This document shows, one piece after another, positions 3,939-62,527 of a stretch of DNA of 64,000 nucleotides (within the stretch, counting starts at the first letter, position 1; each line of letters starts with the position of its first letter). The notes under the pieces are model-generated. The model was not told the DNA's origin, did no database searches, and saw only the letters and a list, made by a program, of their open reading frames with translations. This stretch comes from Sulfuracidifex tepidarius (GTDB taxonomy: Archaea; Thermoproteota; Thermoprotei_A; Sulfolobales; Sulfolobaceae): NCBI RefSeq assembly GCF_008326425.1, contig NZ_AP018929.1, positions 2,122,875 to 2,186,874 of the forward strand, in the 5' to 3' direction. The translations under genes were made by a program, and so were the position numbers.

Positions 3939-4622
3939 GTCTACGCTTCAGGGGCTTTCTCCCAAGGAGGGAAAGTTAAGGTAGCCCTAACCATAGACGA
4001 CCTCAAGGCAATAGTTGACGAAGCCCACAGCGCAGGCCTCAGGGTCGCGTCCCACGCGTACGGTGAGGAAGCAATAGCCAACAGTATTGACGCAGGGGTC
4101 GACACTCTGGAACACGGCTTAGGTCTGAACGAGGAACTAGCCAAGGAGATCAAGAGGAAGGGCATATGTTACGTGCCGACCTTAGCTACTTACGAAGTCA
4201 ACCCTAAGATATCCAAGTTAAGAGAAGAAATAAGGGAGAAAAGGGAGGAGTTAATAAGTACTCACTTCACAGAGGACATGAGAATCGCAGTTTCATTGGG
4301 GTTAAAGATTGTTGCAGGGACGGACTTCGTTGGTTCCTCAGATAGACCTCACGGTATGAACTACAAGGAGATCGTGCTCCTCAGCAAATACATGGGATTT
4401 AGCGGGTCTCTATCGGCTTCAACATCCTCCGCTTCAGAGTGCCTGGGTATCAGGGCGGGTAAAATCGAGGAAGGTTACCCCGCAGACATAACGGTCTTTG
4501 GTGAAGTTAAGACTGCCGAAGACTTGAACCCTTTTAACGTGAAGTACACCATTAAAGGAGGAGTAGTATATAATGCAGGATCCCTCAGGGACACGTTCTG
4601 GGGTACGATAAAGAGGTCATGA
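3936..4622 (+). pseudogene. Amidohydrolase-family protein, 5'-truncated at the tRNA fragment
   Basis: The C-terminal ~225 residues of a metal-dependent amidohydrolase are recognisable: KVYASGAF at the break, then EAHSAGLRVASHAYG (metal-binding His), GVDTLEHGLGL, KIVAGTDF (catalytic Asp) and the closing GKIEEGYPADITVF typical of imidazolonepropionase/prolidase-like enzymes of ~390 residues. The N-terminal half with the HxH metal motif is missing. Homology begins exactly where the tRNA-Glu fragment ends, so the frame's upstream extension to 3777 is not real coding sequence. No start codon or promoter remains for the fragment. Its original substrate cannot be told from this part. Confidence 0.8.
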
Positions 4623-4768
4623 GTTACTTGTGGTCCTTTACTGTATGAAACTCTCCGCGATGTTCTTCTCTATCTTTAATTAAGAGTCTATCACTTCACA
4701 GAATATCTTCTTTTATCTTTCCAATCCAAATAGAATTCTAGGACACCATGAGAATGGATTGAACAGTA

Positions 4769-4778
4769 TTTATAAATA
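4769..4778 (+). promoter_or_regulatory. TATA-like box of cyanase gene
   Basis: TTTATAAATA lies about 90 bases upstream of the cyanase start and is the best archaeal TATA match in this intergenic region. A transcript from it would have a leader of about 65 bases, in line with the Shine-Dalgarno-like AGGTG at 4851-4855. Confidence 0.5.
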
Positions 4779-4865
4779 CGCCAATAAAGTAGCAACATTG
4801 TATTGAAGTCATGCCTAAAAAGTTAATAATGCCTTAACGTGATAAAGATAAGGTGTAAATTTTCT

Positions 4866-5315
4866 ATGCTAGATAAATCTAAAGCTAGAGATCTCATGCT
4901 CCAGAGAAAGAGGGAAAAGAAGCTAACATGGGAGGAAATATCAAAGCACATAGGAAGAAGCCCAGTTTATACATCCATGTTGCTTTACGGCTATGGCCAA
5001 GCAACTGAGGAGGAAGCTGAGGGTTTGGTGAAGATATTGGAATTACCTCCAGAATACAAGGAGGTCTTGATGGATGTACCTATGAGGACTCCCTCTCAAC
5101 CCTGGCCTCCCACAGATCCCTTTGTATACAGACTTTATGAGGCAGTTCTCCTTTACGGACCCGCAATAAAGGACGTAGCCCATGAGATGTTTGGAGACGG
5201 GATAATGAGCATGATAGATGTGATGATAGATGTAGACAAGGTCAAGGATGAGAAAGGGAACGAAAGGATGTTGCTTAAGTTCAATGGAAAATGGTTAAAG
5301 TATAGTAGATGGTAA
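4866..5315 (+). CDS. cynS: Cyanate hydratase (cyanase)
   Basis: Cyanase converts cyanate and bicarbonate to ammonia and CO2 in the cytoplasm, for detoxification or nitrogen supply. The 149-residue protein has the normal family length. Its N-terminal half is a helix-turn-helix-like domain (LTWEEISKHIGRSPVYTSMLLYG). The C-terminal catalytic part contains PFVYRLYEAV, with the Arg and Glu of the active site, and SMIDVMIDV, with the catalytic Ser. The start is taken at ATG 4866 because it follows AGGTG at a good spacing and begins MLDKSKAR like other cyanases; a GTG at 4839 would add nine residues. The gene stands alone between the truncated amidohydrolase and a ureohydrolase. With the urease and ureohydrolases here it fits a nitrogen-scavenging theme. 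Confidence 0.93.
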   Translation: MLDKSKARDLMLQRKREKKLTWEEISKHIGRSPVYTSMLLYGYGQATEEEAEGLVKILELPPEYKEVLMDVPMRTPSQPWPPTDPFVYRLYEAVLLYGPAIKDVAHEMFGDGIMSMIDVMIDVDKVKDEKGNERMLLKFNGKWLKYSRW

Positions 5316-5387
5316 TAAAAGGAAATACAGCGTTATATACATAAAAAATAAATAAAATAAAAAGAAGAGAGGCTAAAATTCTTGTCA

Positions 5388-6338
5388 CTAAGTTAGCTCT
5401 TTTTTAGTTTCGTTTTCTAGCAACTCTTCATTTCCAGTTTCTCTGGCCTTCACACTAGCTCCTTCGTAAAGTAAATAACTTGCTAAAAGCGAAGTGACCT
5501 CGCTTACATCGTAAGGAGGAGATACTTCCACTACGTCCATCCCAACTAAATCCACGTTCAGGCTTCTCATGATTTTGAGCATTTCATAGCTAGTAAGACC
5601 TCCCACCTCGGGTGTACCAGTCCCTGGAGCAAACGCTGGGTCAACTACATCTATGTCTAGAGAAATATAGACCTTCCCTTTGATTGAGTTCAGCTTAGAA
5701 ATTACGTCGTTCATGTTCTCCTTCACCTGCTCTACGTAAACAACGTTAATTCCTAGGTCTTCTACTTCTTTGATATCATTTTTAGAGTAAAGGGGAGACC
5801 TTATTCCTACTTGATAAACCTCCCCTACCAAGCCCATCTCTATCGCTCTCCTCAACCAAGTTCCGTGGGTAAACCTCTTCCCCCAATACGAATCCCAAGT
5901 GTCGAAATGAGAGTCGAAATGTATTAAGTTGACCTTGCCTGCCTTGGAGAGCGACATGAGTACTGGAAGTGTTATAGAGTGATCCCCTCCTGCTATGAAA
6001 GGTGCTTCATAGTCCTTTACGTTGTCTAACCATTCCTCTACTTTCATCATTGTATCCTCAGTTGAACCTGGTACAACATTTACGTCTCCATGGTCACACA
6101 TGTTGAGAATATCGAAAGGATATGTATCCTGAAAACGATTGTAAGGTCTAAGCATCCTGGAGGCTTCCCTTATAGCCCTAGGGCCGAACCTAGCACCTGG
6201 CCTAAAGGAAGTGGCATCATCGAAAGGTATTCCAAGGAAAAAAGCCTTGACTTCCTCTCCCTCTTTACACTCCGGGAGCCTACCAAAGGTGGTTATTTGA
6301 GTAAACCTCGGCGACTCCAAAGCATCTATTTGACGCAT
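5388..6338 (-). CDS. Ureohydrolase (agmatinase / guanidino-acid hydrolase family), copy 1
   Basis: A member of the arginase/agmatinase family, binuclear metalloenzymes that hydrolyse guanidino groups to urea plus an amine. All metal-ligand motifs are present: AGGDHS, FDSHFDTWD and SLDIDVVDPAFAPGTGTPEVGG. The N-terminus (MRQIDALESPRFTQITTFGRLP) resembles guanidinobutyrase/guanidinopropionase-type enzymes more than E. coli SpeB, so the substrate may be a guanidino acid rather than agmatine; this is inference. Length (316) is normal; the last ~15 residues (ETGNEELLENETKKELT) form a polar tail absent from copy 2. ATG 6338 is chosen because it matches the start of copy 2 and has an A/T-rich box about 26-36 bases upstream (6363-6374), suggesting a leaderless transcript. 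Urea produced could feed the urease at 48-52 kb. Confidence 0.9.
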   Translation of the reverse strand: MRQIDALESPRFTQITTFGRLPECKEGEEVKAFFLGIPFDDATSFRPGARFGPRAIREASRMLRPYNRFQDTYPFDILNMCDHGDVNVVPGSTEDTMMKVEEWLDNVKDYEAPFIAGGDHSITLPVLMSLSKAGKVNLIHFDSHFDTWDSYWGKRFTHGTWLRRAIEMGLVGEVYQVGIRSPLYSKNDIKEVEDLGINVVYVEQVKENMNDVISKLNSIKGKVYISLDIDVVDPAFAPGTGTPEVGGLTSYEMLKIMRSLNVDLVGMDVVEVSPPYDVSEVTSLLASYLLYEGASVKARETGNEELLENETKKELT

Positions 6339-6539
6339 AAGATGAAGTCGCTTATACAGTTGATAAGCTTTAATGTAGAAATATGGAAATTGTTCAATAT
6401 ATACAAGACAAGCTATATAGGAATTTTAAGGAGGTCAGGTTAGCGTCTCTGTGTCTACTTAAAGCAGGGGACAGAAACATGTACCTAGTATTTCACTTCT
6501 TATACTTAGTCCTTAAAGGACAAGGTAACTTCATCTAGA

Positions 6540-7372
6540 GATGTCCAAGGTTCGCCGCACTTCGCACTGTACGCTAGGTCTCGTTCTCTTAGATACGGAG
6601 CGTAGGGACCTCTTAGCTCTCAAGGTTAAAATCCGTATAGGCCTTCGAGTAAGGCTTCCCCTTCAGCACTGCCCGAGGTCTCCCCCAGGCTTCTATCAGG
6701 AGGGTAAGGCGGTAGGTAAAAGGACTCCACGTTATCCTCCTCGACCTCGAGGAACTTCCTCATTTTACGTGTATCCTGGAGTTGTCCATCGCCACCTTCA
6801 CGTGCTTCATCACCTTCCTCAAGTGGGGTATGTCTCCGGAGTTCAGTGAGGCTTCTCGTAGGTCGACTAGGTAAAGCTAATCCACCTTCTGGCCGCTGTT
6901 CACCTTATCCGCGTAACTCTTCCCGTCGTTGAGCCATCATTTTCCCCCGACCTTCCCCCGACCCCCTTATTCACGGGGGAAAAGTAACACTCGTGGAATG
7001 CACGTACCCTGTGTTCCTCCCCTATTTTTAAAAGCCTCTCCCCTTCCTCCTCTCCCCGTTTCTCTACGGTCTCCTCGTCTCTGACGTAGGCCCTCTTGTC
7101 TTTCTCGTACTTGAAGCCGGTTTTCCTGAGATGGCCAAAACTCTTCGGGTTCTACTTTATCCCGAAATCTCTCTCAATCGCGCGTTATTAACTTCAAGGT
7201 CCAGAAGTGGTAGTTTAACCCGAAATCCCTAAGGATCGTCTAGACATATTTCTTCTCCTTTCTTGATCTCTACACCGAACTTCTTTAATAGCTCCTCCCC
7301 ATTAACGTTGTATTCCTACCTAAGATCGGACTTTCCACAAAGCTCTCCAACTCTATTTTCCCTATTTTTATA
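6540..7372 (-). pseudogene. IS630-family transposase relic
   Basis: No intact frame is present. Minus-strand translation in shifting frames gives pieces of an IS630-like DDE transposase: a winged-helix-like start (LLKKFGVEIKKGEE), a stretch equivalent to RKTGFKYEKDKRAYVRDEETVEKRGEE, FHECYFSP, VKVAMDNSRIH and the C-terminal hallmark FYLPPYPPDRSLGE (compare LPPYSPxLNPIE). At least four frameshifts or stops separate these, so it is a dead copy. Short direct repeats flank it (CTTAAAGGACAAGGTAAC near 6511 and CTTAAAAGACAAGGTTAT near 7383); whether they belong to the element is unclear. Confidence 0.65.
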
Positions 7373-7380
7373 CTTTGTCA

Positions 7381-7540
7381 GGCCTTAAAAGACAAGGTTA
7401 TATTTCAAATATACGCAAGTTTCGAGACATTAACGTCAAACACGAAGAGACCCCCACACTCCGTGTCTGGAGGCTAATGACCTAACAGCGTGAGGAGGTA
7501 CGGCTGACTTGGACGTCAATACTGGGTGAAGTTGCCTTGT
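7381..7540. repeat. Diverged non-coding repeat, copy A (copy B at 53617-53770)
   Basis: About 150 bases here resemble 53617-53770: both have a TTTATATTTC-like A/T-rich box, then TTCGAGACATT(A/G)ACGT, ACAC(A/G)AAGAGA and CTCCGTGTCTGG in the same order and spacing. In both copies ACAC/GTGT segments could form a hairpin. No coding frame is conserved between them. They may be ends of a lost mobile element or a small RNA gene family. Confidence 0.5.
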
Positions 7541-7543
7541 TCT

Positions 7544-7807
7544 TTAAAGCCTGATGAAGTATATTCTAGCCTTAGCGACTTTAGTCCTAACAATACCGTT
7601 AAGTGTAGCGTAAGTTCTCCAGTAGCTCTCGTCTAACTCTACACTGTTTATTTTTGGGTATAACGGGTTCGCTAAAAGCAAATAACCTGAGAAGCTCGTG
7701 TCTATTGAAGCATTGACCTCAATCGACATGTGTTTAACTATATCCGTAACGGTTATGGGAACTTCAGGTCTGTCACCTATTCTAAAGCAATCGAGGACCA
7801 TACCCAT
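7544..7807 (-). CDS. Small clan AA (retropepsin-like) aspartic protease, probably C-terminally truncated
   Basis: The 87-residue frame contains SIEVNASIDTSFSGYLLL, which fits the catalytic D-T-(S/G) and hydrophobic flank of the small archaeal 'clan AA aspartic protease' family (DTGFSGxLxL). These proteins are usually about 110-130 residues. Here the frame stops soon after VKAxIYFIRL, so a C-terminal part with the GxxxL motif appears missing. It lies just downstream of a broken DUF5678-like gene, a partner often seen in a putative two-gene cassette. ATG 7807 is the only reasonable start. The function of such pairs is not established and a toxin-antitoxin role is only a suggestion. This copy may be inactive. 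Confidence 0.5.
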   Translation of the reverse strand: MGMVLDCFRIGDRPEVPITVTDIVKHMSIEVNASIDTSFSGYLLLANPLYPKINSVELDESYWRTYATLNGIVRTKVAKARIYFIRL

Positions 7808-7864
7808 TCTCCAATTTCTTGTCTTGAATAATTTTTATTACTTATCATATACTTATTATACTCC

Positions 7865-8143
7865 TTAGCTCTCAAGGGCCTTCTTCTCGTCCTTAAAGGA
7901 CCCCACGTATTTACCGTCGCACACTAAAACGTAATTCCCCTCATTTAGAGCCTTCATTGCCTCGGGAGTAGTTTTAAGGACGGTGTAGTTTTGGTCCGAA
8001 ACGCTGTCTGTAACATTGAGCTAAAGCGATATAGCTTGCTGAATGGCATAGGAAACGTTAATCCCGAGTAATGCAGCCTTAGCCTTCAACATTTTGTAAA
8101 GTTATTCGTCCATGTTTTTTATAAGAACCTTCGTCGTCCATAG
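7865..8143 (-). pseudogene. DUF5678-like small protein, broken by stops
   Basis: Minus-strand reading gives TTKVLIKNMDE-stop-LYKMLKAKAALLGINVSYAIQQAISL-stop-LNVTDSV and then TPEAMKALNEGNYVLVCDGKYVGSFKDEKKALES-stop. The last part fits DUF5678 (GxYVxxxDGKxVxxxxD), and the front looks like a short ribbon-helix-helix/antitoxin-type domain. Two in-frame stops and no in-frame ATG make it a pseudogene. It ends 58 bases upstream of the aspartic-protease gene, consistent with a former two-gene operon. Confidence 0.5.
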
Positions 8144-8355
8144 GTCAATTTTCGATTATATATAATTAATAAAGTTTATCTTTATTAACTATATTAGAAC
8201 ATTCATGAATAAGTATAATGAGATTGATCTATAAAGTAGAAGTAATTCCAGATTTTCGATCTCAGGACCTTCTTGGCTCCAGGTAAGAATATATCGAAGG
8301 TGAAGAGGCTAGAGTCAACTGTGACGTGATATTGAGAGAGATGACTATCTTCGTT

Positions 8356-8982
8356 CTAGAAAGGCCATCTCGGCGGCCCGCTTATACCGTGGGAGACGTA
8401 AACTTTCTCCACCTTAAATTCCTTGACTTTCTCTATGCTCCTTCTCAACTGGTTTAAGTCCTCATAGATGGACGGTATCTTAAGGCCCTTCTTGTCTCCC
8501 TGTAACATATCGCCCACGATCAACGCCCTTTCGTCTTCCACATAGATCGATACCGAGTCCTCGGTATGTCCGGGTGTGAAAACTAACTGGATCCCGGGGA
8601 AGAGCTCTCCCTCATTGAGCTTCTCTACGTCGAAGACGGGACCGGACCTTCTGGTGAAGAACGGAGACCCGAGGGAAAACAACAGTTTTAGGGGAGCCGA
8701 ATGGAGGACTGGCTTCTTAGGAATTCCTTTCCTGAGGAAATCGATTCCCTTCTCGTGAATGAGGTTGTGGGGCATTTTCAGCTCACTCGCTCCACCAATG
8801 TGGTCCCCATGGGAGTGTGTGTATACTACTGTCTTAATCGACGAGGGACTCTTCCCGCTTTTCTCGAGGAACGAAATGATCTTCCTACCGCTACCAACTA
8901 CTCCCGAGTCCACCAAGAACACATTCCCCCTGGTCTCCACCAGAAAGGACTTAACGAACCGAAGGTTTAACTCAAGGATCAT
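8356..8982 (-). CDS. MBL-fold metallo-hydrolase
   Basis: A metallo-beta-lactamase-fold hydrolase of 209 residues. The metal motif THSHGDHIGG, the later VFTPGHTEDS and IVGDMLQGD supply the usual His/Asp ligands of a binuclear zinc site, and a final His is in KVYVSHG. The start is placed at ATG 8982 (MILELNLRFVKSFLVE), where homology to the family begins; the upstream extension is low-complexity and unlike the family. An A/T-rich box about 26-33 bases upstream suggests a leaderless transcript. The tail GPPRWPF after the last His looks short, but the core is complete. Substrate unknown: family members include glyoxalase II-like and lactonase-like enzymes. Confidence 0.85.
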   Translation of the reverse strand: MILELNLRFVKSFLVETRGNVFLVDSGVVGSGRKIISFLEKSGKSPSSIKTVVYTHSHGDHIGGASELKMPHNLIHEKGIDFLRKGIPKKPVLHSAPLKLLFSLGSPFFTRRSGPVFDVEKLNEGELFPGIQLVFTPGHTEDSVSIYVEDERALIVGDMLQGDKKGLKIPSIYEDLNQLRRSIEKVKEFKVEKVYVSHGISGPPRWPF

Positions 8983-41312: not shown

Positions 41313-41945
41313 TCATGAGATAAACTTCTTATATTCCAATATTAATAGGTTCCTGTTCCCCCCTCCCCTGTGTGCGTTAGCAGTGTAAGTATCGCATACC
41401 ATTAATGGGCCTAATATTATCGGGTATAAGTAGAACTTTTCGTTGTTTATCTTCATAAACCATGATGCGACGTCTTCTGGGGTTATGAGTTTTCTATCCA
41501 GGTTGACGCTGATGCCTATTTCCTTTGCGACCTCGTTTATATCGTCTAAGCATTCCTCATTAAACTCAAAGTTATGTAATTTTTTGTATTCTTCTGATCT
41601 TATAAGCTCAAGACCCCTCTCAACCATTGCCTGGTGGTGGCTCATTGAAGAGAGGGCCGCTATGTCCCTGAGTTCGCTGTTACAACACCCTCTTATCATA
41701 GAGCTTACAATATATCCGCTGTAAAACTCGTGACCGTAGTAAGACGTGGTATAAGCCTTTGAGGCTTTACCTACGTCATGAAAGGCTACTGCTATTTCGA
41801 TGTTCTTCTTCACAGTACTTATCTCTACACCAGTCCTGTGAGAAAGTATCGGGTTGATGTAAGCGAAGTTCCTCCTGAAGCAGTCCAAAGTCCCGAGAGC
41901 GTGGTCCTTAAAAGTCTCCTGTCCAAAAAATGCCCAACAAGTCAT
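41313..41945 (-). CDS. cas3'': Cas3'' HD nuclease of type I-A CRISPR-Cas
   Basis: A 210-residue HD-domain nuclease, the separate Cas3'' subunit that degrades target DNA with the Cas3' helicase. HD motifs: DHALGTLD, AVAFHDVGKAS (His-Asp with the conserved Lys), YGHEFYSGYI and SMSHHQAM. It is the last gene of the operon; its start overlaps the cas3' stop by four bases (ATGA). Its 3' end lies next to an IS1-like relic, which may have removed further genes. Length is normal for I-A. Confidence 0.88.
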   Translation of the reverse strand: MTCWAFFGQETFKDHALGTLDCFRRNFAYINPILSHRTGVEISTVKKNIEIAVAFHDVGKASKAYTTSYYGHEFYSGYIVSSMIRGCCNSELRDIAALSSMSHHQAMVERGLELIRSEEYKKLHNFEFNEECLDDINEVAKEIGISVNLDRKLITPEDVASWFMKINNEKFYLYPIILGPLMVCDTYTANAHRGGGNRNLLILEYKKFIS

Positions 41946-43597
41946 TTCAACCTTAACCCCTTTTTGCTATCGTAATACTCTCTTTTAACCTTTAAGCCAA
42001 GGAGTATTTTCCTATCATAAGTCACCTTCCTGTACTTCCTGCACAAGTCCTTCCAATCCCTAAATTCTATATACCCCTCAACTACTTCTACTTTATCCGT
42101 AGAGCCGTCGCTACCGTACTTCTCAAAGAAAGCCAAAACCTTATTACCTTCTCTTTCTAAAGGGGCTTTGTCTACCATCTCCCCATTGAAGGGTATCAAG
42201 TCTTCCTGAGAGTCCGGTTTATCAACTGCTAAGTTTATTATGAAGGAGTTCGTTAGCGTACAGTACTTGTCGAGGAGGTAGTCCAGATCCTTTCTAGTCA
42301 GAAAAGGGTTAATGCTTATCTTATCGAGCTCCTCAAAGAGCCTGCGGTTTATTTCGGGTTTTGTCATTATATTATCCATCACCTCAGCGTACCCCTTCTT
42401 GCCGTAGCACCCGTAAGGGTCTTTTAAGCAGACGTCATTACCCTTCAAAGCTTTAAGTGTGCTATCAACTTCGCTCTTATCATAAGGGGCGTAGTCCCCA
42501 CTCGTCCATATATATAATTTACCTCCCTCCTTTTCGTTCCTCCTCAAAAGCCTGCCGACACGCTGGACTATTGACGGTAAGGGCGCTTGCTCGGTTATCA
42601 TTACGTCAGATGACATGTCAACTCCTACCTCAATCACTTGTGTAGAAATTATCAATTGGCACTCGTCTAGGTCGATCTTCTTTCTATCTGAGACCTTAAA
42701 CCTTGAATGTATTAAGCAAGGGTTTAGGTCTCTCAGTTTTTCGTAAATTGAAATGGCCTTATCTACAGTGTTTACGACTATTACTGTCCTGCCGTCAATG
42801 TACTTTGAAAAATCGCCTTGATCAATAAACCTTACATCTATATCGGGGACTTTGACTTCATCTTTCACTTCAACTACTTTATACTTCGCTTTGCCCGCAT
42901 TGCACTCGTATTCTCCTTCTTCTCCTAATCCTCTGCATTCCCTGTTTTTCACTGAGTCGCCGTAATTCCTTACCACAGAGACCTTCACTACGTCCTTCGC
43001 GTTGTTTATTACCTCTTCCTCAAGGCCCCTGTTCGGCGTAGCTGAGGAAAGGACGAAGTTCACTCCGGTTTTTGATAAATGGTTGATAGCCCCTATTAAC
43101 GAAGTCCAACTGTTACCTTCGTTCATTAGGTGGAACTCATCGAAATGTACAAGGGAAGTATATATGGAGAACCTGGGTAAATCGTAATGTCCGTGGACCG
43201 AAAAAGGCTCCCCTACACTAGCCTTATAGAGGTTGAGGAGGAACGAGTCGTAAGTAGTTATAACGAACTTTGCTAAGAAATTTGGGGACCTTAGTTCTGA
43301 AGGTGCAAAGGAGTATTGTACTGCGTACTTTAAACTGGCAGACCTCTTAGCTATGTCCTCTACCAAAGACCTGGTAGGTACTACGTGTATTAGCCTGCTG
43401 AAGTTCGACGTACTGTGAGTAGATAACCACTTCGCTAACTCTATTGAGAGAGTAGTTTTACCATATCCCGTGGGGAAGTTTAAGATGAAGTTTAAGTCCC
43501 TGCACTCAGTGAAGCCGTTGCCATCTTTACAGTCCATCAATTCGAGGACTTTCCTAATACCTTCCCTAAGGTGAGTAAAGTCTTTGCTTAACGGCAA
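41942..43597 (-). CDS. cas3': Cas3' helicase of type I-A CRISPR-Cas
   Basis: A 551-residue superfamily 2 helicase. Walker A is NFPTGYGKTTLS, Walker B is the DEAH-box variant VHFDEFHLMNEG, motif III is VLSSATP and motif VI is VQRVGRLLRRN. It unwinds DNA for the HD nuclease encoded next. A Cys-containing insert near residues 220-250 (RECRGLGEEGEYECNAGKAKY) is not a helicase motif; the same Cys/charged style recurs in the cas7 product. The start ATG 43597 overlaps the upstream cas8a gene by 32 bases. Confidence 0.9.
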   Translation of the reverse strand: MPLSKDFTHLREGIRKVLELMDCKDGNGFTECRDLNFILNFPTGYGKTTLSIELAKWLSTHSTSNFSRLIHVVPTRSLVEDIAKRSASLKYAVQYSFAPSELRSPNFLAKFVITTYDSFLLNLYKASVGEPFSVHGHYDLPRFSIYTSLVHFDEFHLMNEGNSWTSLIGAINHLSKTGVNFVLSSATPNRGLEEEVINNAKDVVKVSVVRNYGDSVKNRECRGLGEEGEYECNAGKAKYKVVEVKDEVKVPDIDVRFIDQGDFSKYIDGRTVIVVNTVDKAISIYEKLRDLNPCLIHSRFKVSDRKKIDLDECQLIISTQVIEVGVDMSSDVMITEQAPLPSIVQRVGRLLRRNEKEGGKLYIWTSGDYAPYDKSEVDSTLKALKGNDVCLKDPYGCYGKKGYAEVMDNIMTKPEINRRLFEELDKISINPFLTRKDLDYLLDKYCTLTNSFIINLAVDKPDSQEDLIPFNGEMVDKAPLEREGNKVLAFFEKYGSDGSTDKVEVVEGYIEFRDWKDLCRKYRKVTYDRKILLGLKVKREYYDSKKGLRLK

Positions 43598-44546
43598 GGC
43601 TTATCCCTTCTTTAAGCCTCTTCACCATTCTCGGCGTAATGAAGCCAAAAGCTTCGTCCTTTAAATAGGTGTCCCTGGCTATAAAGTAAGCTACCTGCTC
43701 TGGAGAAACACTACCACTAACGGCTTCAAAAACGTAGTTAGCTATCTTATTAAATACGTCGGTGGAACTATGGTCGTCAACCAACTTCTGGTCGTTGAGT
43801 AACCTAAGGTACCTTTCTTTGTCTTTCTCGTCCTTGCTGTTAACGTTCTTCCATACCCTAATTATAGGCTCTATTGAACCAAAAGTGTCATCTTCAATTA
43901 TTTCTCCCCTGTGATTACTGAGTTTTAGGACTACTAACTTTTGGCAAACGTTATCACTGTAATGCATTGCAAACAGGAAGACCCTGCCCATGTGGGACAG
44001 CTTATCAATATTCCTAGCTTTAATCCTCTCTTCAGATATCAAGTTCCTGCATGCTTGGTACTCCATTATAGTATCTACCGGGGCAATACCTATAACGTCC
44101 GTTTTTTTAACCCTGTAGTGGAAGACAGTAAATAAGCCTAAAGCTATCCAAGCCAGGAGTGCGGACTGCTTAGAGATCTCGATGCTCTTCTTTTTCTTTC
44201 CTCCGCCGTTCCACCCGCCGTACCACCTCTCAGCCTCCATTAATTCGGGTAAAAGGAGCGTGTAGGAGTAGTCCTCTTTATCGTCATTAAAGAAGTCCTC
44301 CACCACTTTCCCTGCGTCTTCCTCAAGGATGTAGGAAGTTTGCTCCTTAAATTTACTGCTGGACTTCTTAACCAAGCTAGCTGATCTGGTTTCCCTGAAC
44401 TTCTTCAGCACATCTTCTAAGTTCCCCACATTTTCTAATTCCGCAATATCGCCCTTTATTTTGAAACTGGCCCCCGTCTCCAGTAATGCGCTCACTGTCA
44501 AGTCTCTTGCCAAGTAACCCATTGGTGGTAATTTTATTTCAGCCAT
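43566..44546 (-). CDS. cas8a: Cas8a-type large subunit of type I-A Cascade
   Basis: A 326-residue protein in the position of Cas8a2/Csa4, between cas5 and cas3'. The sequence is divergent, as usual for this subunit; I see no catalytic motif. It starts MAEIKLPPMGYLARDL and has a Lys/Ser-rich middle (KSSSKFKEQTSY) and a hydrophobic stretch (SALLAWIALGLFTVFHYR). Large subunits bind the PAM and help recruit Cas3. The call rests mainly on operon position and size. ATG 44546 overlaps the cas5 stop (shared ATGGCTGAAATAA). Confidence 0.7.
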   Translation of the reverse strand: MAEIKLPPMGYLARDLTVSALLETGASFKIKGDIAELENVGNLEDVLKKFRETRSASLVKKSSSKFKEQTSYILEEDAGKVVEDFFNDDKEDYSYTLLLPELMEAERWYGGWNGGGKKKKSIEISKQSALLAWIALGLFTVFHYRVKKTDVIGIAPVDTIMEYQACRNLISEERIKARNIDKLSHMGRVFLFAMHYSDNVCQKLVVLKLSNHRGEIIEDDTFGSIEPIIRVWKNVNSKDEKDKERYLRLLNDQKLVDDHSSTDVFNKIANYVFEAVSGSVSPEQVAYFIARDTYLKDEAFGFITPRMVKRLKEGISLAVKQRLYSP

Positions 44547-45358
44547 TTCCCTAACCCCTCCTTTACCGTTATCAAGTATTTATCTCCAAGCTTAAAGACA
44601 GTACATTCTTCGCTTACTTTACCTTTGAGCTTAACGTAACCCCCTATTAGAGGGCCGTGAGAAGGTATCCAGAACTCGTCTTCAATTCCCCCAACAGGCT
44701 CTTTAGAAAGGTTGTACGCGTTTGACACAGAGAGCTTATACGGCTCCATCCCCTCGACGTCTTGGATGCACACCTTGGGTACAAAGAAATTAGTGTAAAC
44801 CTCGAAATCAGTGGAAACCCCTTCTGTCCCAACGTCGACTGCGTCTACGACCTTTACGTCGGTAATAGTTACAATAGACTCCTTATTACCTAAAGAAACT
44901 ATTTGCCAAGCGTACTCGGATACCTGTTCTGCCTTATCCTTAACTAAAACCGCTATTGAAAACCTGACGTCCTCAGCGTAGGTCTTCCCAAAGGCGGAGA
45001 CCCCGAACCACTCTATTAAATTATCGATCTCTTTATCTTTCTCTTTCCTTGTCCTCTTCCTGTACTTATCTTGCCTATAGGAAACTCTCTGCTCCCTCAA
45101 AATGTCTGCATAGTGCAGTAACCTAGGCTCATCAGCACCATATGCAACCCAAAAAATATAGGGCTTATAATCATTAATGAACTCCTCAGTACAAGAAGTC
45201 CCGTTCTTCACGGCATAGCTACTGCAATAACCCCTGCTTAAGGCCCCCAATACCGTGGAGATTGGAACGTAAGGATAAGAGCTACCTCCGGCAGAAGCCT
45301 TTGGTGCCCTTACAGAAAAACCCCAGTGGTGCAACCCTGAGACTAAAACGCCTTTCAT
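44534..45358 (-). CDS. cas5: Cas5a subunit of type I-A Cascade
   Basis: A 274-residue Cas5. The N-terminus MKGVLVSGLHHWGFSVRAPKASAGGSSYP (first ferredoxin-like strand and substrate loop) is typical of crenarchaeal Cas5a, as is PISTVLGALSRGYC. Cas5 caps the 5' handle of the crRNA in the interference complex. An additional segment of about 30 residues (~100-125, REQRVSYRQDKYRKRTRKEKD) is rich in basic residues. The start shares ATGA with the cas7 stop. Length is slightly above typical (~240). Confidence 0.85.
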   Translation of the reverse strand: MKGVLVSGLHHWGFSVRAPKASAGGSSYPYVPISTVLGALSRGYCSSYAVKNGTSCTEEFINDYKPYIFWVAYGADEPRLLHYADILREQRVSYRQDKYRKRTRKEKDKEIDNLIEWFGVSAFGKTYAEDVRFSIAVLVKDKAEQVSEYAWQIVSLGNKESIVTITDVKVVDAVDVGTEGVSTDFEVYTNFFVPKVCIQDVEGMEPYKLSVSNAYNLSKEPVGGIEDEFWIPSHGPLIGGYVKLKGKVSEECTVFKLGDKYLITVKEGLGKWLK

Positions 45359-46386
45359 GATCCCGCTTCTTTATCTCCTTTTATTTTTCCATATTCTTCA
45401 AATACCTCCACCGGGTTACTCTTACTACCTTCAACTCCCTTAGCATAGAAGACTACTGTAGGAGTATTAATACCAAGGACTTTACCGAAAGAGTTGGCAG
45501 TGTTCCTCACCAACTCAAGGTATTCTTTAATGTTTCCGTTAATCGGCGGTATGTTGAAGGGCTTTTCCGATACGGACAGCACAAGGGCTTCTATTTCAGT
45601 GAGCGGGTTATACCTACTGCGTTTCGCGCCGAAGAGGAACTGTGTCAAAGTCAGCGTAAGTGAGTCCAGTGCACATTTCATCCTTTCTTTTCTACACTCA
45701 CTTTTTCCTTCACACTCAACTTCCTTATCTTTTCTACACTCACTTTTTCCTTCACACTCAACTTCCTTAACGGGGTAGTTCTGCGTAATACCGATCCCGT
45801 CCAAGTTTAGGTACCCTGTTAGTACATAGGAAGCGCTGGCAGTCTCCACGTTATAAAGCGACTGTATGTTTTCGTTCTTATGTTCATCGATTAACTCCTT
45901 AGTTGCATACCTGACTTGGAATTGAGAGGCAATTGCTGAAGCTTTTACCGTGTCAAGTGCTGGGATCATGTAACTGAAGGCTATGTTAGAAGTCCTCTTG
46001 ATTAACTTATTGGGGTTCATGAACCCAGCCACATCTTCTACTACGTCCTCACTTATTACACATTGTTCATAATCCGAACCTTTCTTGTCCTCACACTTAC
46101 TTTTATGTACGCTGTCCCCAGCGCCCCTCTTAAGCAGTACTCCTTGTTTTACTAGGTCTTCTACTGGCAGTCCTTTCTGAGTTGCTATGTCGGCCAGATT
46201 GGCTTGGTACCCGTGCGCTATCATTTCACCGCTCACTGCGGGGACGTAAGTTACAGAGTACGTCTTATCGTTTTCCTTAACTACTATTGGTGCCCTCCTG
46301 TGCCTTACGTAGTTGCCTGCTGACTCTACGTTGTTTAGGTCTTCAACGTTAACCAAATACCTAACCGAGAAGGATATCCACGTCAT
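45355..46386 (-). CDS. cas7: Cas7a (Csa2) backbone subunit of type I-A Cascade
   Basis: A 343-residue Cas7/DevR-family protein that forms the backbone along the crRNA. Recognised by MTWISFSVRYLVNVEDLNNVESAGNY and YVPAVSGEMIAHGYQ near the N-terminus. It is longer than common Csa2 (~320) because of a Cys-rich insert: the 14-residue unit KEVECEGKSECRKD/E is repeated twice, encoded by a perfect 42-bp tandem duplication (45686-45727 and 45728-45769). Another Cys/Lys segment (HKSKCEDKKGSDYEQC) lies earlier. ATG 46386 directly follows the csa5 stop. Confidence 0.88.
   Translation of the reverse strand: MTWISFSVRYLVNVEDLNNVESAGNYVRHRRAPIVVKENDKTYSVTYVPAVSGEMIAHGYQANLADIATQKGLPVEDLVKQGVLLKRGAGDSVHKSKCEDKKGSDYEQCVISEDVVEDVAGFMNPNKLIKRTSNIAFSYMIPALDTVKASAIASQFQVRYATKELIDEHKNENIQSLYNVETASASYVLTGYLNLDGIGITQNYPVKEVECEGKSECRKDKEVECEGKSECRKERMKCALDSLTLTLTQFLFGAKRSRYNPLTEIEALVLSVSEKPFNIPPINGNIKEYLELVRNTANSFGKVLGINTPTVVFYAKGVEGSKSNPVEVFEEYGKIKGDKEAGS
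45686..45769 (-). repeat. 42-bp perfect tandem duplication inside cas7
   Basis: Two adjacent identical 42-bp units. The length is a multiple of three, so the frame is kept and 14 residues are duplicated. The absence of any difference suggests a recent event. Confidence 0.85.
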
Positions 46387-46387
46387 T

Positions 46388-46858
46388 TTACTCACCTACA
46401 GCTATTGATATTAGGCTCCTAGCAAAGCCTATGTCTTGCTCTACGTTCTTAAGGAAGTCCTTAACCTTTCTAGGATTTACCAGGACAGGGTTACCGTGCT
46501 TAGTCCAAGTAACCGGAGAAATGCAGAGGTCGTCACTTTTATCTACCCCATGGACTATGTCAGGGTAAGCTCTTAGGAAAGTAGAAGGAATTTCACTGCT
46601 CTTAGCTGTTACTAAACAAGGGATTTGATACGTCTTTACCTGACCTTTATAGTACAAGTTAACGCTCTTAACTGTTGCAGAAGAAAGGTAAGAAGTGTAG
46701 TCCCTTAAAGCCTGTGCTATTACGTCCCTTACACAGTTAGTGTCCAGAGCGTAAATTAACGGGTCTATGTAGTTAAAACGCCTGAGGACAATGTAGAACC
46801 TAAATACCTTAACTAAACTCCTGAACTCTTTCCCTACAACTTCCGAAACCGATTCCAT
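46388..46858 (-). CDS. csa5: Csa5 (Cas11a) small subunit of type I-A Cascade
   Basis: A 156-residue mostly helical protein heading the operon, the place and size of Csa5, the small subunit of the Sulfolobales I-A complex. It contains ALRDYTSYLSSATVKSVNLYY and ends with KVKDFLKNVEQDIGFARSLISIAVG. The start is ATG 46858 (MESVSEVVGKEF): the TATA-like box at 46881-46890 lies about 27 bases upstream, so the transcript is leaderless and the longer frame beginning near 46921 is not used. No cas1, cas2, cas4, cas6 or csa3 is present in this window. Confidence 0.8.
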   Translation of the reverse strand: MESVSEVVGKEFRSLVKVFRFYIVLRRFNYIDPLIYALDTNCVRDVIAQALRDYTSYLSSATVKSVNLYYKGQVKTYQIPCLVTAKSSEIPSTFLRAYPDIVHGVDKSDDLCISPVTWTKHGNPVLVNPRKVKDFLKNVEQDIGFARSLISIAVGE

Positions 46859-46880
46859 AACAAATAACGTCACTGATATG

Positions 46881-46890
46881 TTATAAGTAT
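46881..46890 (-). promoter_or_regulatory. TATA-like box of cas operon
   Basis: Minus-strand ATACTTATAA, centred about 27 bases before the csa5 ATG. It lies between the operon and the end of the IS1-like element, so the element did not remove the promoter. Confidence 0.6.
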
Positions 46891-46934
46891 TGCGATGGAG
46901 ATACTTTGTGGACTTTCTCAATTCTAAGCAGGGG

Positions 46935-56934: not shown

Positions 56935-57386
56935 GATAGAGAGAAAAGAACGGGGTGTTAAGGTAAAGGAGTACTTCCTCTTCCTTCCCTTACTTTCATT
57001 TTTTTCTACCTTCTCCGTACTCTTTTCTGATCAAATAAGAAAGTCTGAAGACAGTTTCAGACTTTTCACGAGCTCGGGGTTAAGAACTGAGGAGAGAGAA
57101 CGACGAGATTACTAGTTGAGGACAGAGACGGAAATGCAGGTAGGCCGGACTGAGGTATTTTCGCTGCTTATATATCTAATCCCTTTAAGTATGTATGTGT
57201 TCTCACGACATAGAGAACCTCGATCTGAACAACGAACTTGATTTTGGATTTACGTATAGAAGTGGAGTTGAACTCTTTACATATCAGCCTTGCTTCTCCA
57301 TTATTTTATATATTGGATTTATAAAAGGATAATGTATCACCAATTTTTTTCTGTGTTTAAAAATTTTCAGATAGTAGAAGGAAGTC
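56935..57386. other. Region between deiminase gene and CRISPR leader
   Basis: Begins with a pyrimidine-rich stretch (56980-57030, including TTTTTTT) that probably terminates the deiminase transcript, followed by A/T-rich sequence. No gene seen. The right part probably belongs to the CRISPR leader. Confidence 0.45.
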
Positions 57387-57545
57387 AAAAATTCGGCAGT
57401 GAAAGGGAGAACGAAATATGTTTTTCAAAACATATTATTTTTCACGTAAAACTCCCTCGGCAGTGAAAGGGAAGTTGATGGTGCGACTTCACTGCCGAAT
57501 TCAGAGTAACGTTTTTTAGGGAGTTTTTACATAATGTTAAGCAGG
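57387..57545 (+). promoter_or_regulatory. CRISPR leader with repeated motif and hairpin
   Basis: The A/T-rich stretch before the first repeat contains TCGGCAGTGAAAGGGA twice (57393-57408, 57457-57472) and an inverted copy TTCACTGCCGAAT (57488-57500). Between them a perfect 10-bp inverted repeat (57415-57424 with 57427-57436; arms AATATGTTTT and AAAACATATT) is present. Position on the left matches the repeat orientation (repeats end in GAAAC), so pre-crRNA is read to the right and new spacers should enter at 57546. Confidence 0.6.
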
Positions 57546-60500
57546 GTTTGTAGTGATCCTTAGAGGGTTTGAAACGTAGGGATGGATCCAGAGAATGGAT
57601 ATGTGGAAGGCGGTTTGTAGTGATCCTTAGAGGGTTTGAAACCTTCATTTATGCTGTGGGACTTCTTTGACAGAAAGTAAGTTTGTAGTGATCCTTAGAG
57701 GGTTTGAAACTGTCAATGATTTGGGGCTTCATGCCCCTTGTCAAGGTTTGTAGTGATCCTTAGAGGGTTTGAAACTAGTTCCCGAAAAAGGGGTACACTG
57801 TTTTCGCTTTCCGTTTGTAGTGATCCTTAGAGGGTTTGAAACAAAGAGCTAAGAATAAAAGAGATTAAGCTTTTCTTGAGTTTGTAGTGATCCTTAGAGG
57901 GTTTGAAACTTCCGTCTTCTTCTCTAAGGATCATCAATATTTTCCCAGTTTGTAGTGATCCTTAGAGGGTTTGAAACCTTTTTCTCTTGTTTCGCTTTTT
58001 CTATCTTCTCTTGGTTTGTAGTGATCCTTAGAGGGTTTGAAACCTAACATCGTTTTCGCGGTTCCGGGCGGGCCGATAGTTTGTAGTGATCCTTAGAGGG
58101 TTTGAAACGGAAAAACGTCCACAAATTCATTCAATCCTGCAGATTGTTTGTAGTGATCCTTAGAGGGTTTGAAACAGAACTAGGTGCAAAGTAATACCCA
58201 GCAAAGCCTGGGTTTGTAGTGATCCTTAGAGGGTTTGAAACTGAAAGTCAGGTAGTAGACCTGGTAAATTCTGTATTGTTTGTAGTGATCCTTAGAGGGT
58301 TTGAAACGATAGAAGTTGTAAGGTTTGTTCCTCAATGACGACGGTTTGTAGTGATCCTTAGAGGGTTTGAAACAGCCATTTCGTTATCTTATCCAGCCCG
58401 CTTATTGTAGGTTTGTAGTGATCCTTAGAGGGTTTGAAACAAGATCTTAGACGGCGAGCCCGAAAAGGCTGGAGCTCTGTTTGTAGTGATCCTTAGAGGG
58501 TTTGAAACCATGGTGAATTAGATGGTTGGTAGAGAGATCATCATGTTTGTAGTGATCCTTAGAGGGTTTGAAACTGTCTTCTACAATTATGTCGTTGTAC
58601 TCACTTATCTCCTGTTTGTAGTGATCCTTAGAGGGTTTGAAACCTAACACAAACGCCTAAGTTCCAAAACGTGTCCATTACGGGTTTGTAGTGATCCTTA
58701 GAGGGTTTGAAACTTCAAAATTTGAGGGAGAAAAAAGAGAGAGATGTGACGTTTGTAGTGATCCTTAGAGGGTTTGAAACTGAAATAACTACTAGTGACA
58801 TGTACCAATTACAACTTAGTTTGTAGTGATCCTTAGAGGGTTTGAAACTATATACCGAGGTCGGAAAGGGATAACGTAATTAAAGGTTTGTAGTGATCCT
58901 TAGAGGGTTTGAAACGCCGAAGGCACCATCATTACAAGTGAAAAAGAGTTAGGTTTGTAGTGATCCTTAGAGGGTTTGAAACTCTTTTGTTCATGATAAA
59001 CCCGACGTGCCCATTTTCGGTTTGTAGTGATCCTTAGAGGGTTTGAAACCAAAGTCCTCGTTAATTTTTTTGTCTAACTCTTCCCGTTTGTAGTGATCCT
59101 TAGAGGGTTTGAAACGAATCCCTTGTCCCCTGCCTGGGCTGTTCGTCAGAAAGTTTGTAGTGATCCTTAGAGGGTTTGAAACCCGGGGTAGACACATCAA
59201 AAATCGGTATCAATGAGGTTTGTAGTGATCCTTAGAGGGTTTGAAACTGTTCAAGTGCCAAAGCGGGCTCATCGTTTTCCCACCCGTGTTTGTAGTGATC
59301 CTTAGAGGGTTTGAAACCTTCTCTCATTACCTCATTTATATCGCATACCATACTAGTTTGTAGTGATCCTTAGAGGGTTTGAAACCGGGACTGGAATAAT
59401 TCTAGCTAGTCAGCGAATTTAGTTTGTAGTGATCCTTAGAGGGTTTGAAACTGAACGCTGAAATACAAAAAAAGTTAGATAAGATGCAGTTTGTAGTGAT
59501 CCTTAGAGGGTTTGAAACAACACTTCCCAAGCTCTCTTGTTGAATGAGGATTTCAGTTTGTAGTGATCCTTAGAGGGTTTGAAACGACGGGGGGAAAAGT
59601 ATAGATCGTGATATAGAAATTGGAGTTTGTAGTGATCCTTAGAGGGTTTGAAACTCTGTCAATCAATGGGAGACAAAACCCGCACTGGGCGAGTTTGTAG
59701 TGATCCTTAGAGGGTTTGAAACAGGGGGTGTCTAGAATGAGGGTCATCACGTTTAAAGGTTTGTAGTGATCCTTAGAGGGTTTGAAACTTCCTTGATTCC
59801 GAACACGACATCCCCGCTGATATCTAGTTTGTAGTGATCCTTAGAGGGTTTGAAACCGCAATATACCGGATCCTTTTAAGAAATCTAGCGAAGTTTGTAG
59901 TGATCCTTAGAGGGTTTGAAACTAGGTCATCCCAGTATACTTCTTCCCTCTCTTGTCCAGTTTGTAGTGATCCTTAGAGGGTTTGAAACTACGACAATGA
60001 TATCTCCACACATATTGTCATTATCTGTTTGTAGTGATCCTTAGAGGGTTTGAAACAACACCGTAAGCGGGAAAGCATATTACTCAACTATTGTTTGTAG
60101 TGATCCTTAGAGGGTTTGAAACTCGATGACGCAATAGAGGAAATGGAAGAAGATCAAGTTTGTAGTGATCCTTAGAGGGTTTGAAACTATTGAATGAAGC
60201 ACCTGTAAAAGCGTCATACGTTCCATGTTTGTAGTGATCCTTAGAGGGTTTGAAACTCTTCTACGCGTTCCTGTGCTAATTTGCTATCTACAGTTTGTAG
60301 TGATCCTTAGAGGGTTTGAAACCTTCATGTCCCACGGCGGATATAAACCCGCCTGATAGGTTTGTAGTGATCCTTAGAGGGTTTGAAACGAGGGGATAAA
60401 ATGGGAAAAACGTATCTCGTCAACGGTTTGTAGTGATCCTTAGAGGGTTTGAAACAAAAACTAGGGAAAAAGTTGAATGTCTTTTTAGTTGAGTTTGTAG

Positions 60501-62527
60501 TGATCCTTAGAGGGTTTGAAACGGTAAAACGCTATAGACCCTCCGCTGACGCCACCGTGTTTGTAGTGATCCTTAGAGGGTTTGAAACCTACTACCATAA
60601 GAAGAAGCATCATCACGGGTGACAGTGTTTGTAGTGATCCTTAGAGGGTTTGAAACTCAATAAAAAATGACCCCTGTCGGGGTCATGGGGTATAGTTTGT
60701 AGTGATCCTTAGAGGGTTTGAAACTATGTCTTCTCGTTTGACAAAGGTTGGCAAACTATGTGTTTGTAGTGATCCTTAGAGGGTTTGAAACCTCCTTTCC
60801 ATAGTGCTAGACCGTTACCCGTATAAAGTTTGTAGTGATCCTTAGAGGGTTTGAAACCTACTACCATAAGAAGAAGCATCATCACGGGTGACAGTGTTTG
60901 TAGTGATCCTTAGAGGGTTTGAAACTCAATAAAAAATGACCCCTGTCGGGGTCATGGGGTATAGTTTGTAGTGATCCTTAGAGGGTTTGAAACTATGTCT
61001 TCTCGTTTGACAAAGGTTGGCAAACTATGTGTTTGTAGTGATCCTTAGAGGGTTTGAAACCTCCTTTCCATAGTGCTAGACCGTTACCCGTATAAAGTTT
61101 GTAGTGATCCTTAGAGGGTTTGAAACCAAAGCTCTTTGTATTTGCTATTTCGGTATTTGCAGTTTGTAGTGATCCTTAGAGGGTTTGAAACCGGATAATG
61201 AGATAAATCAGGTGAATCTCATACAGCAAGTTTGTAGTGATCCTTAGAGGGTTTGAAACGATTTCGGTGAAAACACTAAAATATATTCAACATGGGGTTT
61301 GTAGTGATCCTTAGAGGGTTTGAAACTCCTGCTCTTCATTAGACCTATTGTCTTCAACGTAAAGTTTGTAGTGATCCTTAGAGGGTTTGAAACAGTAGTT
61401 GAGAATTGACTAGATTCGATTAGTTCGTGTTTGTAGTGATCCTTAGAGGGTTTGAAACTGTAAGTGTGGAAGATAGACCGAATCTTCTTCTAGCGTTTGT
61501 AGTGATCCTTAGAGGGTTTGAAACTATCCCCGCACCTTGAATTCTGACTTCCTCGCCGCCGTTTGTAGTGATCCTTAGAGGGTTTGAAACTTTTTAGGGG
61601 GGCTTACACACGTTCCTTCCTCCACGTGGTTTGTAGTGATCCTTAGAGGGTTTGAAACGAGGAGTAATAGACGTAGCTTCCTTAACGGGGATCCTGTTTG
61701 TAGTGATCCTTAGAGGGTTTGAAACTCATCACAATCATGTTGGAAATTAAACCACTGTTAAGTTTGTAGTGATCCTTAGAGGGTTTGAAACTATGCTATT
61801 TCTTTCTTCTCCTTCTTCTCCATCTTCTTGTTTGTAGTGATCCTTAGAGGGTTTGAAACATAATGATACCGACAACCTAACTCGTTTAATAATAAGGGTT
61901 TGTAGTGATCCTTAGAGGGTTTGAAACCAATTTAACACGGCACAACCCATAACCATAAACCTGGTTTGTAGTGATCCTTAGAGGGTTTGAAACTCTTAAG
62001 CCCTTTCTGAAATCCTCTAAGTTTGAGAAGAGTTTGTAGTGATCCTTAGAGGGTTTGAAACTCACTATACGGTCAATATGGAGGATTCATAGAAAATGGT
62101 TTGTAGTGATCCTTAGAGGGTTTGAAACATGATACAACTAGCGTGACCCAATCGAGCAATGGAAGTTTGTAGTGATCCTTAGAGGGTTTGAAACACAGTT
62201 TCAAAACTAAAAAACTCCTCATCCTCTTCAGTTTGTAGTGATCCTTAGAGGGTTTGAAACGGAGCTGAGCTAGCGGGTACATTGAAAGTGGGGATTTGTT
62301 TGTAGTGATCCTTAGAGGGTTTGAAACTCTCGTTCCTCAACAATTCAGCCAAATCCTTAAGTTCGTTTGTAGTGATCCTTAGAGGGTTTGAAACCAGTTA
62401 GCCCCTATATTCATAGCACCTTTCGTGTTATAGTTTGTAGTGATCCTTAGAGGGTTTGAAACTATATGCTTGAGAGGTACTTATACCCCTCTGAATGGTT
62501 TGTAGTGATCCTTAGAGGGTTTGAAAC
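57546..62527 (+). CRISPR. CRISPR array, 75 repeats / 74 spacers
   Basis: The 30-bp repeat begins GTTTGTAGTG and ends GGTTTGAAAC, with the central ATCCTTAGAG able to form only a weak hairpin. I counted 75 copies by eye, with no variant noticed, at an average period of 67 bases; spacers are about 35-40 bases. The first repeat starts at 57546 and the last ends at 62527. The GAAAC end fits Sulfolobales repeats and sets the direction of transcription to the right. Four consecutive spacers are duplicated (60559-61096). The repeat is longer than the 24-25-bp repeats common in Saccharolobus. The type I-A operon 11 kb to the left is a likely user, but cas6 and adaptation genes are not in this window. 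Confidence 0.98.
60559..61096 (+). repeat. Tandem duplication of four repeat-spacer units in the array
   Basis: The 269-bp segment 60559-60827 (spacers beginning CTACTACCAT, TCAATAAAAA, TATGTCTTCT, CTCCTTTCCA) is followed immediately by a second copy, 60828-61096, with the same four spacers in the same order. This is recombination between repeats, not independent acquisition. Confidence 0.9.

What the first reader, a model, noticed from the sequence alone, without database searches (positions are those of the whole stretch)
57387..57545. CRISPR leader with direct and inverted TCGGCAGTGAA motifs and a perfect hairpin
Two direct copies of TCGGCAGTGAAAGGGA plus an inverted TTCACTGCCGAAT within 110 bases of the first repeat, with a 10-bp perfect inverted repeat between them. 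Such an arrangement could be a docking site for Cas1-Cas2, a regulator such as Csa3, or a spacer-integration anchor. I do not know this pattern from described leaders.
Basis: partly seen in the sequence, partly recalled or inferred. Interest (0 to 1): 0.55.

Follow-up and report, generated by a model that had tools for sequence, protein, structure and literature searches.

The report
Three-site landing platform in CRISPR leaders
In a group of archaea, the DNA just upstream of a CRISPR array carries three copies of a short motif at fixed spacing, and in two species all three copies have changed together, which suggests that one dedicated protein reads them, most likely to guide new spacers into the array.

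Summary
Two direct copies (M1, M2) and one inverted copy (M3) of TCGGCAGTGAA precede a 75-repeat array. The trio recurs in the genome's four intact leaders of this repeat type and in seven other species of the family (20 leaders, eight species). M1-M2 is 64-65 bp, the M2-M3 outer span 40 bp, and M3's core ends 48-49 bp before the repeat. All 12 exact copies of the 11-mer in the genome lie in these leaders. The linked adaptation genes are type I-B. In two species the 3' half of the motif has changed in all three sites while the geometry held, on one branch of the Cas1 tree; this points to one trans-acting reader of all three sites. Leaders of 25-nt-repeat (type I-A) arrays show the same direct-direct-inverted plan with an unrelated motif (TGCGACC). 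The exact 10-bp hairpin was seen only in two species of the window's genus. Csa3 is unlikely: four of eight species have no Csa3 above the family cut-off. Best reading: a docking platform for the spacer-adaptation machinery, a new variant of a known kind. A dedicated activator of array transcription is the main rival. No binding or acquisition data exist here.

The parts
57366..57545 (+). CRISPR leader unit (about 180 bp); upstream of it the G000 leaders stop being alike
57393..57408 (+). M1, first direct copy (core CGGCA starts at -152)
57415..57436 (.). AT-rich dyad AATATGTTTT/AAAACATATT between M1 and M2; exact 10-bp arms only in G000 and G001
57457..57472 (+). M2, second direct copy (core CGGCA starts at -88)
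57488..57501 (-). M3, inverted copy (core TGCCG starts at -53); outer span from CGGCA of M2 to TGCCG of M3 is 40 bp
57512..57519 (+). TATA-like TTTTTTAG of the presumed array promoter
   Evidence: position and similar T-rich stretches in relatives; function inferred, no promoter test for archaea was run
57546..62527 (+). CRISPR array, 75 exact copies of GTTTGTAGTGATCCTTAGAGGGTTTGAAAC, 74 spacers

Best explanation
The three motif copies are three binding sites for one dedicated sequence-specific component of the spacer-acquisition machinery of this type I-B system (Cas1b-Cas2-Cas4, or a partner that recruits them). Bound at fixed distances, M2 and M3 (an inverted pair, fitting a two-fold symmetric complex) and M1 further up would let the leader fold and present the leader-repeat junction to the integrase, doing in an archaeon without IHF what IHF plus upstream motifs do in some bacterial systems. 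Shown: the sites, their geometry, their restriction to leaders, their concerted change, and agreement of leader family with Cas1 clade.
For: (1) Geometry in 19 leaders of eight species: M1-M2 64 or 65, M2..M3 outer span 40 in 19 of 19, M3 core to repeat 48 or 49; each leader has just these two CGGCA/G and one TGCCG in the 190 bp scanned. A 20th leader (G006) reads the same by eye. (2) Exact TCGGCAGTGAA: 34 of 37 genome-wide copies in six genomes lie in these leaders, 12 of 12 in G000; reversed-pattern control 0 or 1 per genome. (3) In G006 and G023 the 3' half of all three sites has changed (GTGAAAG to ACCCCAC / ATCTCCC-like) with geometry kept; on the Cas1 tree these two are sisters next to G022, which keeps the other motif in M1 and M2, so one switch on one branch is the simplest account. 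(4) In six of the eight species an intact Cas1 of this clade lies within 5 kb of a leader; in G023 it is about 16 kb off, across the array; in G011 only a 99-aa Cas1 fragment is left there. In G000 the locus is type I-B. (5) Leader and repeat families agree with Cas1 clades on the tree. (6) Leaders of 25-nt-repeat arrays show the same plan with another motif, 12 of 18 by a strict scan, with changed sites in G013 and G023. (7) Published: Cas1-2AB of S. solfataricus integrates specifically at leader A even with repeat C, and not at the CD locus (PMC5815122, section 16). (8) The two arrays seen with a broken trio (G000 relic, one repeat; G011 second array, seven repeats) are short and degenerate.
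Against: No binding or acquisition data for this system. The core of M3 ends 14 bp upstream of a TATA-like stretch, so a dedicated activator of array transcription fits points 1, 2, 3 and 5 as well. M3 varies more than M1 and M2 (G010 CGGCAATTC, G022 CGGCAGCGT). The switch is one event in I-B; the permutation result (1 of 20000) ignores relatedness. The strict scan finds the trio in 0 of 31 flanks of 24-nt-repeat arrays and 1 of 7 leaders of the third repeat family, and no common plan stood out in other families of the order, so it is not a universal requirement. S. solfataricus leader A needs at least 400 bp in vitro (PMC5815122, section 18), more than the roughly 200 bp that hold the trio in 25-nt-repeat leaders.
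Confidence: 0.6

Rival explanations
1. The sites bind a dedicated transcription factor that switches array (pre-crRNA) transcription, with M3 just upstream of the promoter, and play no direct role in spacer insertion.
For: The core of M3 ends 14 bp upstream of a T-rich TATA-like stretch, and a like stretch stands there in all eight species compared; a leader-only motif fits a regulator of these promoters alone.
Against: Between I-B leaders and 25-nt-repeat leaders the M2-M3 span is about the same (44 bp for TTCGGCA..TGCCGAA, by adding two bases a side to the 40; 44-46 for TGCGACC..GGTCGCA) while M3-to-repeat differs (48-49 vs 76-78); this comparison depends on where the motif ends are drawn. 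Published chimeras place integrase specificity in the leader (PMC5815122).
Confidence: 0.25
2. The sites bind Csa3 (Csa3a or Csa3b), as the leader-distal motif of S. islandicus does.
For: Csa3a binds a leader motif at -143..-94 in S. islandicus and mutating it cuts acquisition (PMC9456107); M1 and the dyad lie at a like distance.
Against: Best TIGR01884 hits in G000, G001 and G006 are 41.3, 37.7 and 40.9 bits (cut-off 60.2) and cover only positions 105-197 of 202; G009 has 50.9 bits over nearly the whole profile, so a divergent Csa3 is possible there; G010, G011, G022 and G023 are above the cut-off. S. solfataricus A and B leaders are said to lack the Csa3a site (PMC10883916, passage).
Confidence: 0.07
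3. The copies act as an RNA or cruciform hairpin (M2/M3 stem, or the AT hairpin) rather than as protein sites.
For: M2 and M3 can pair over 11 bp; Cas1 of S. islandicus prefers a stem-loop near the repeat in vitro (PMC9456107).
Against: M3 changes in G010 and G022 break pairing with an unchanged M2; M1 switches along with M2 and M3 in G006 and G023 although a M2/M3 stem does not need it; the AT hairpin is exact in two species only.
Confidence: 0.04
4. No function: the likeness only reflects recent copying of one leader.
For: The four G000 leaders are 98-100% alike.
Against: Across eight species the core columns are 88-100% conserved and the spacings hold, against a mean of 66% for the columns between M1 and M2; the three sites switch together in G006 and G023.
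Confidence: 0.04

Closest known systems
Type I-F leader inverted-repeat motifs with IHF (Cas1-2/3 integrase)
   Same: Inverted motifs in the leader; in I-F they are contacted by Cas2 in a leader folded with IHF (PMC12259127, a preprint, passages).
   Different: Archaeal, and archaea are said to lack an IHF-like bender (PMC5815122, passage); a third, direct copy; no structure or binding shown here.
S. islandicus type I-A leader (Csa3a distal motif, Cas1 proximal stem-loop)
   Same: Sulfolobales leader with two regions that affect acquisition (PMC9456107).
   Different: 24-nt-repeat leaders gave no trio in the strict scan (0 of 31 flanks); Csa3 has no hit above cut-off in four of eight trio-bearing species. 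That S. islandicus REY15A belongs to the 24-nt-repeat family is recalled.
S. solfataricus leader A with Cas1-2AB
   Same: The leader decides specificity for its own Cas1-Cas2, with unknown host factors (PMC5815122). That leader A belongs to the 25-nt-repeat family with the TGCGACC trio is recalled, not tested.
   Different: Type I-A, other motif, longer spacing to the repeat.
Conserved motifs in type I-A leaders of Sulfolobales (PMC4390879, Fig. 3 legend)
   Same: Conserved blocks within about 230 bp of the repeat (passages).
   Different: Another leader subfamily (PAM CCN); no three-site layout is stated in the passages that I saw; figures are not held.

Membership tests
Leader of a type I-B CRISPR array | Directly upstream of the first repeat of an array, shared by arrays with the same repeat | tested here: met
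Leader of a type I-B CRISPR array | Linked locus with Cas1b and I-B interference genes | tested here: met
   G000 only: Cas1b 359.2 bits (cut-off 304.1), Csh2 210.1 (171.55), Cas2, Cas3 core and HD over cut-off; Cas8b/Csh1, Cas5b and Cas4 hits below their cut-offs. The other species were placed by Cas1 clade only
Csa3a-binding leader motif | Csa3 present in the genomes that carry the motif | tested here: not met
   no hit above cut-off in G000, G001, G006, G009; above in G010, G011, G022, G023
IHF-dependent leader (I-E, I-F) | IHF present and IHF site in the leader | not tested
   lack of an IHF-like bender in archaea taken from a passage of PMC5815122
Integrase-recognised upstream motif | Bound by Cas1-Cas2 or partner and needed for acquisition | not testable with these tools
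   needs binding and acquisition assays
Integrase-recognised upstream motif | Fixed phasing to the leader-repeat junction | tested here: met
   M1 -152 to -154, M2 -88/-89, M3 -53/-54 in 19 of 19 leaders

The most novel reading that the evidence does not exclude
Leaders of two CRISPR subtypes in this family (I-B, and I-A with 25-nt repeats) share one sequence-independent blueprint: direct site, AT-rich stretch, direct site, inverted site at about 45 bp outer span. Each Cas1 clade reads its own motif made of a constant core and a switchable half, so leaders and integrases form lock-and-key pairs that can change specificity by concerted rewriting of all three sites.
Probability: 0.4. Interest if true: 0.72.

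Novelty: new variant of a known kind. Interest (0 to 1): 0.55.

Why it matters
How archaeal CRISPR integrases find the leader without IHF is left open in the papers read (PMC5815122, PMC9456107). Here are three defined sites of about 10-11 bp with fixed geometry, natural variants in which all three have switched, and natural leaders that lost them, so site recognition, partner specificity and DNA folding can be tested directly. If right, it would also explain how two leader/Cas1 families stay separate in one cell (G000 carries both).

Tried and rejected
Csa3 as the shared reader: disfavoured. Hairpin as a core element: not conserved. M2/M3 as a paired stem: M3 changes in G010 and G022 are not matched by M2. 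Likeness of motif and repeat (GCAGTGA vs GTAGTGA): dropped by eye, because the repeats of G001, G009 and G022 differ there while their motif does not. Spread: the doublet pattern in genome contigs gave two loci of one record, Metallosphaera javensis; viral contigs none; plasmids none; in all three the tool may leave out records of genomes near the window's. The repeat itself had no exact match in genome contigs. Distant relatives of this Cas1 (G278, G221, G218, G247; 41-49% identity) have leaders without this motif by eye.

Wider scan: arrays in 40 loci of other families of the order and six loci of the distant relatives gave 92 flanks; both sides of an array were used, so many are not leaders. 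Eleven flanks scored, with shuffle counts from 0 to 27 of 200, six of them at 2 or fewer, under wider limits than. Some may be real trios with other spacing (L148 three arrays, L144, L145); this was not followed, and no general blueprint is claimed. The distance limits of the scan were set after I had seen examples in both families, so its hit rate is not a blind test.

Rows dropped before counts: the G000 relic leader and the G002 contig-edge fragment (M1 only) are not among the 19; the fourth G006 leader was added by eye; a further G006 array start (L080 and L182) was cut by the fetched stretch; the G011 second array has lost the trio. In one search two G011 flanks appear twice (29 different sequences among the 31) and at least one of the 31 (L106_13919) does not look like a leader. 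The 19 I-B leaders hold 18 different sequences and the 18 of the 25-nt family 16. In the Cas1 tree loci were labelled by repeat and leader; L104, L105 and L107 by repeat alone; rows of L076, L083, L084, L132 and L137 were left out, and loci without a Cas1 hit at E 1e-5 (for instance L106, L110, L127, L128) are not in it. The tree is a quick one with SH-aLRT support only, midpoint-rooted, with a warning on long branches; its I-B group has support 67. One search printed nothing because of a faulty pattern and was redone.

Papers: PMC9456107: abstract, introduction, results 2.1-2.2, end of 2.4, 2.5, discussion, figure legends. PMC5815122: passages and sections 16 and 18. PMC4390879, PMC7694759, PMC12259127, PMC10883916, PMC3839810: passages only. 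The statement that the layout was not found in print rests on the paper searches; most subscription papers are not in that library.

Full report
What is there. The array at 57546-62527 has 75 exact copies of a 30-nt repeat. The 180 bp before it hold two direct copies of TCGGCAGTGAAAGGGA (57393, 57457), a perfect inverted copy (57488-57501) and a 10-bp AT-rich hairpin between the first two. A direct repeat this long arose in 0 of 3000 shuffles, an inverted pair of 14 or more in 1 of 3000, and one of 10 or more in 39 of 3000.

Same genome. The leader occurs four times, 98-100% alike, each in front of an array with the same repeat, plus a fifth relic at 736855 that lost M2 and has one degenerate repeat. 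All 12 exact copies of TCGGCAGTGAA in the 2.56-Mb genome are in the four leaders; the reversed control pattern gives none. Over six genomes 34 of 37 exact copies are in such leaders (G006 and G023 were not in that search). The three others were not looked at. Diverged copies elsewhere were not searched genome-wide.

Relatives. A DNA search of the family hit 9 of 31 genomes at the set threshold. Two of these (G015, G029) are weak short hits that are not leaders by eye and G002 is a contig-edge fragment. Sixteen sequences are aligned in A1. Two more genomes, G006 and G023, were missed by the DNA search but have a Cas1 in the same high-scoring band and related repeats. Their leaders keep the arrangement with an altered motif: M1 CGGCAACCCC / CGGCAATCTC, M2 CGGCAACCTC / CGGCAACCTA, M3 (reverse complement) CGGCAATCTC / CGGCAATCTC. 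In the other six species M1 and M2 read CGGCAGTGAAAG or differ by one base; M3 follows with more change. One of the genomes, G010, has the contig length of the Metallosphaera javensis record, whose family is Sulfolobaceae.

Geometry. In 19 leaders of eight species, counted from the first base of the repeat, the cores start at -152 to -154, -88/-89 and -53/-54; M1-M2 is 64 or 65; the outer span from M2 to M3 is 40 in all 19. A fourth G006 leader reads the same. Core columns are 88-100% conserved over the eight species; the columns between M1 and M2 average 66%. The exact AT hairpin is limited to G000 and G001.

Concerted change. On a Cas1 tree of 41 sequences G006 and G023 are sisters (SH-aLRT 96) and G022, whose M1 and M2 have the GTGAAAG form, is their sister (99). 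The simplest account is one switch of all three sites on one branch. A permutation of site labels among species reached the observed within-leader identity in 1 of 20000, without correction for relatedness.

The cas genes. Next to the G000 leader at 518 kb lie Cas4, Cas1b (TIGR03641, 359 bits, cut-off 304), a Cas8b-like protein, Csh2, Cas5, Cas2 and Cas3, a type I-B set. The window itself holds a type I-A interference operon at 41942-46921 (Cas3', Cas5a, Csa2, Csa5), about 10 kb before the array, and no cas1. Type I-B is known but rare in Sulfolobales: 5 loci against 33 of I-A in one survey (PMC7694759, passage).

A second leader family with the same plan. Another array of G000 (repeat GTTGAACCCATAACGGGATTGAAAG, about 0.1 kb from the second cas1) has TGCGACC twice and an inverted, changed copy. 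Leaders taken around Cas1 genes across the family show that arrays with 25-nt repeats share this: TGCGACC at about -199 and -122 and GGTCGCA ending at about -77; M1-M2 76-78, outer span 44-46. One such array (G016, L111) lies beside Cas5a and Csa2 over their cut-offs, so it is type I-A; the others were not typed, and the G000 Cas1 of this kind has no subtype call. A scan for any direct-direct-inverted trio found it in 19 of 19 I-B leaders, 12 of 18 leaders with 25-nt repeats (10 genomes), 0 of 31 flanks with 24-nt repeats and 1 of 7 of the third family; for the hits, 0-3 of 200 shuffles reached the score. Of the six 25-nt misses, five keep changed or partial sites at or near the same places (L116 has two arrays with one leader sequence), and in G013 and G023 the ACC half reads AAC, TAC or TAT in all three sites. 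The sixth (L129_13680) shows no such leader. The two families have unrelated motifs and deeply split Cas1 clades, so the shared plan suggests a common way of docking; chance or convergence in a two-family comparison is not excluded. Exact dyads between M1 and M2 in this family vary in place and sequence, and two of the 12 leaders have none of 6 bp or more.

Mechanism. I commit to docking of the adaptation machinery (0.6). M2 and M3 face each other, as expected for a two-fold symmetric complex such as Cas1-Cas2; M1 would be a further contact, reached by bending the AT-rich stretch (inference). The type I-F integrase contacts inverted leader motifs in a folded leader (PMC12259127, passages). In S. 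solfataricus, Cas1-2AB follows its own leader rather than the repeat, and needs unknown host factors and ATP (PMC5815122). The main rival is a transcription factor dedicated to the array promoter (0.25). Csa3 is unlikely (PMC10883916).

Membership. It is a leader of a type I-B array (met in G000). It is not filed as a Csa3a leader motif (presence of Csa3 not met in four of eight species). It works like an integrase-recognised upstream motif, but membership there needs binding data.

Limits. All evidence is comparative. The switch in I-B is a single event. The trio is not general in the order.

Noticed in passing
window 60589-61096: Four consecutive spacers are duplicated in order within the array (60589, 60657, 60725, 60792 again at 60858, 60926, 60994, 61061), an internal tandem duplication.
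   Followed up: partly
L012 / G000:C1:736855-737048: Relic leader in the same genome: M2 deleted, one degenerate repeat, no array.
   Followed up: partly
L074 (G011:C1:1128001-1146000), second array on the minus strand: Array of seven degenerate repeats whose leader has lost M1-M3; upstream now reads like a cas3-type coding fragment (by eye, untested), and the genome's Cas1b match is only a 99-aa open frame.
   Followed up: partly
L070 / G009 Cas1: G009 groups with G000 and G001 on the Cas1 tree although it shares a genus label with G010, suggesting transfer of the I-B set between genera.
   Followed up: no
window 41942-46921: Type I-A interference operon (Cas3', Cas5a, Csa2, Csa5) with no cas1 in the window; the genome's second Cas1 is at 2055650, outside the window.
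   Followed up: no
L098 (G218), flank of the array at 1628-8443: A distant Cas1 relative has its own direct pair ATACGACTAG around an AT-rich stretch in the flank that looks like its leader.
   Followed up: no
L148 (G178), L144 (G228), L145 (G246): Array flanks in other families of the order with possible direct-direct-inverted trios of other motif and spacing.
   Followed up: no
L066:11882-13786: TPR plus protein-kinase protein between cas2 and cas3 of the I-B locus.
   Followed up: no
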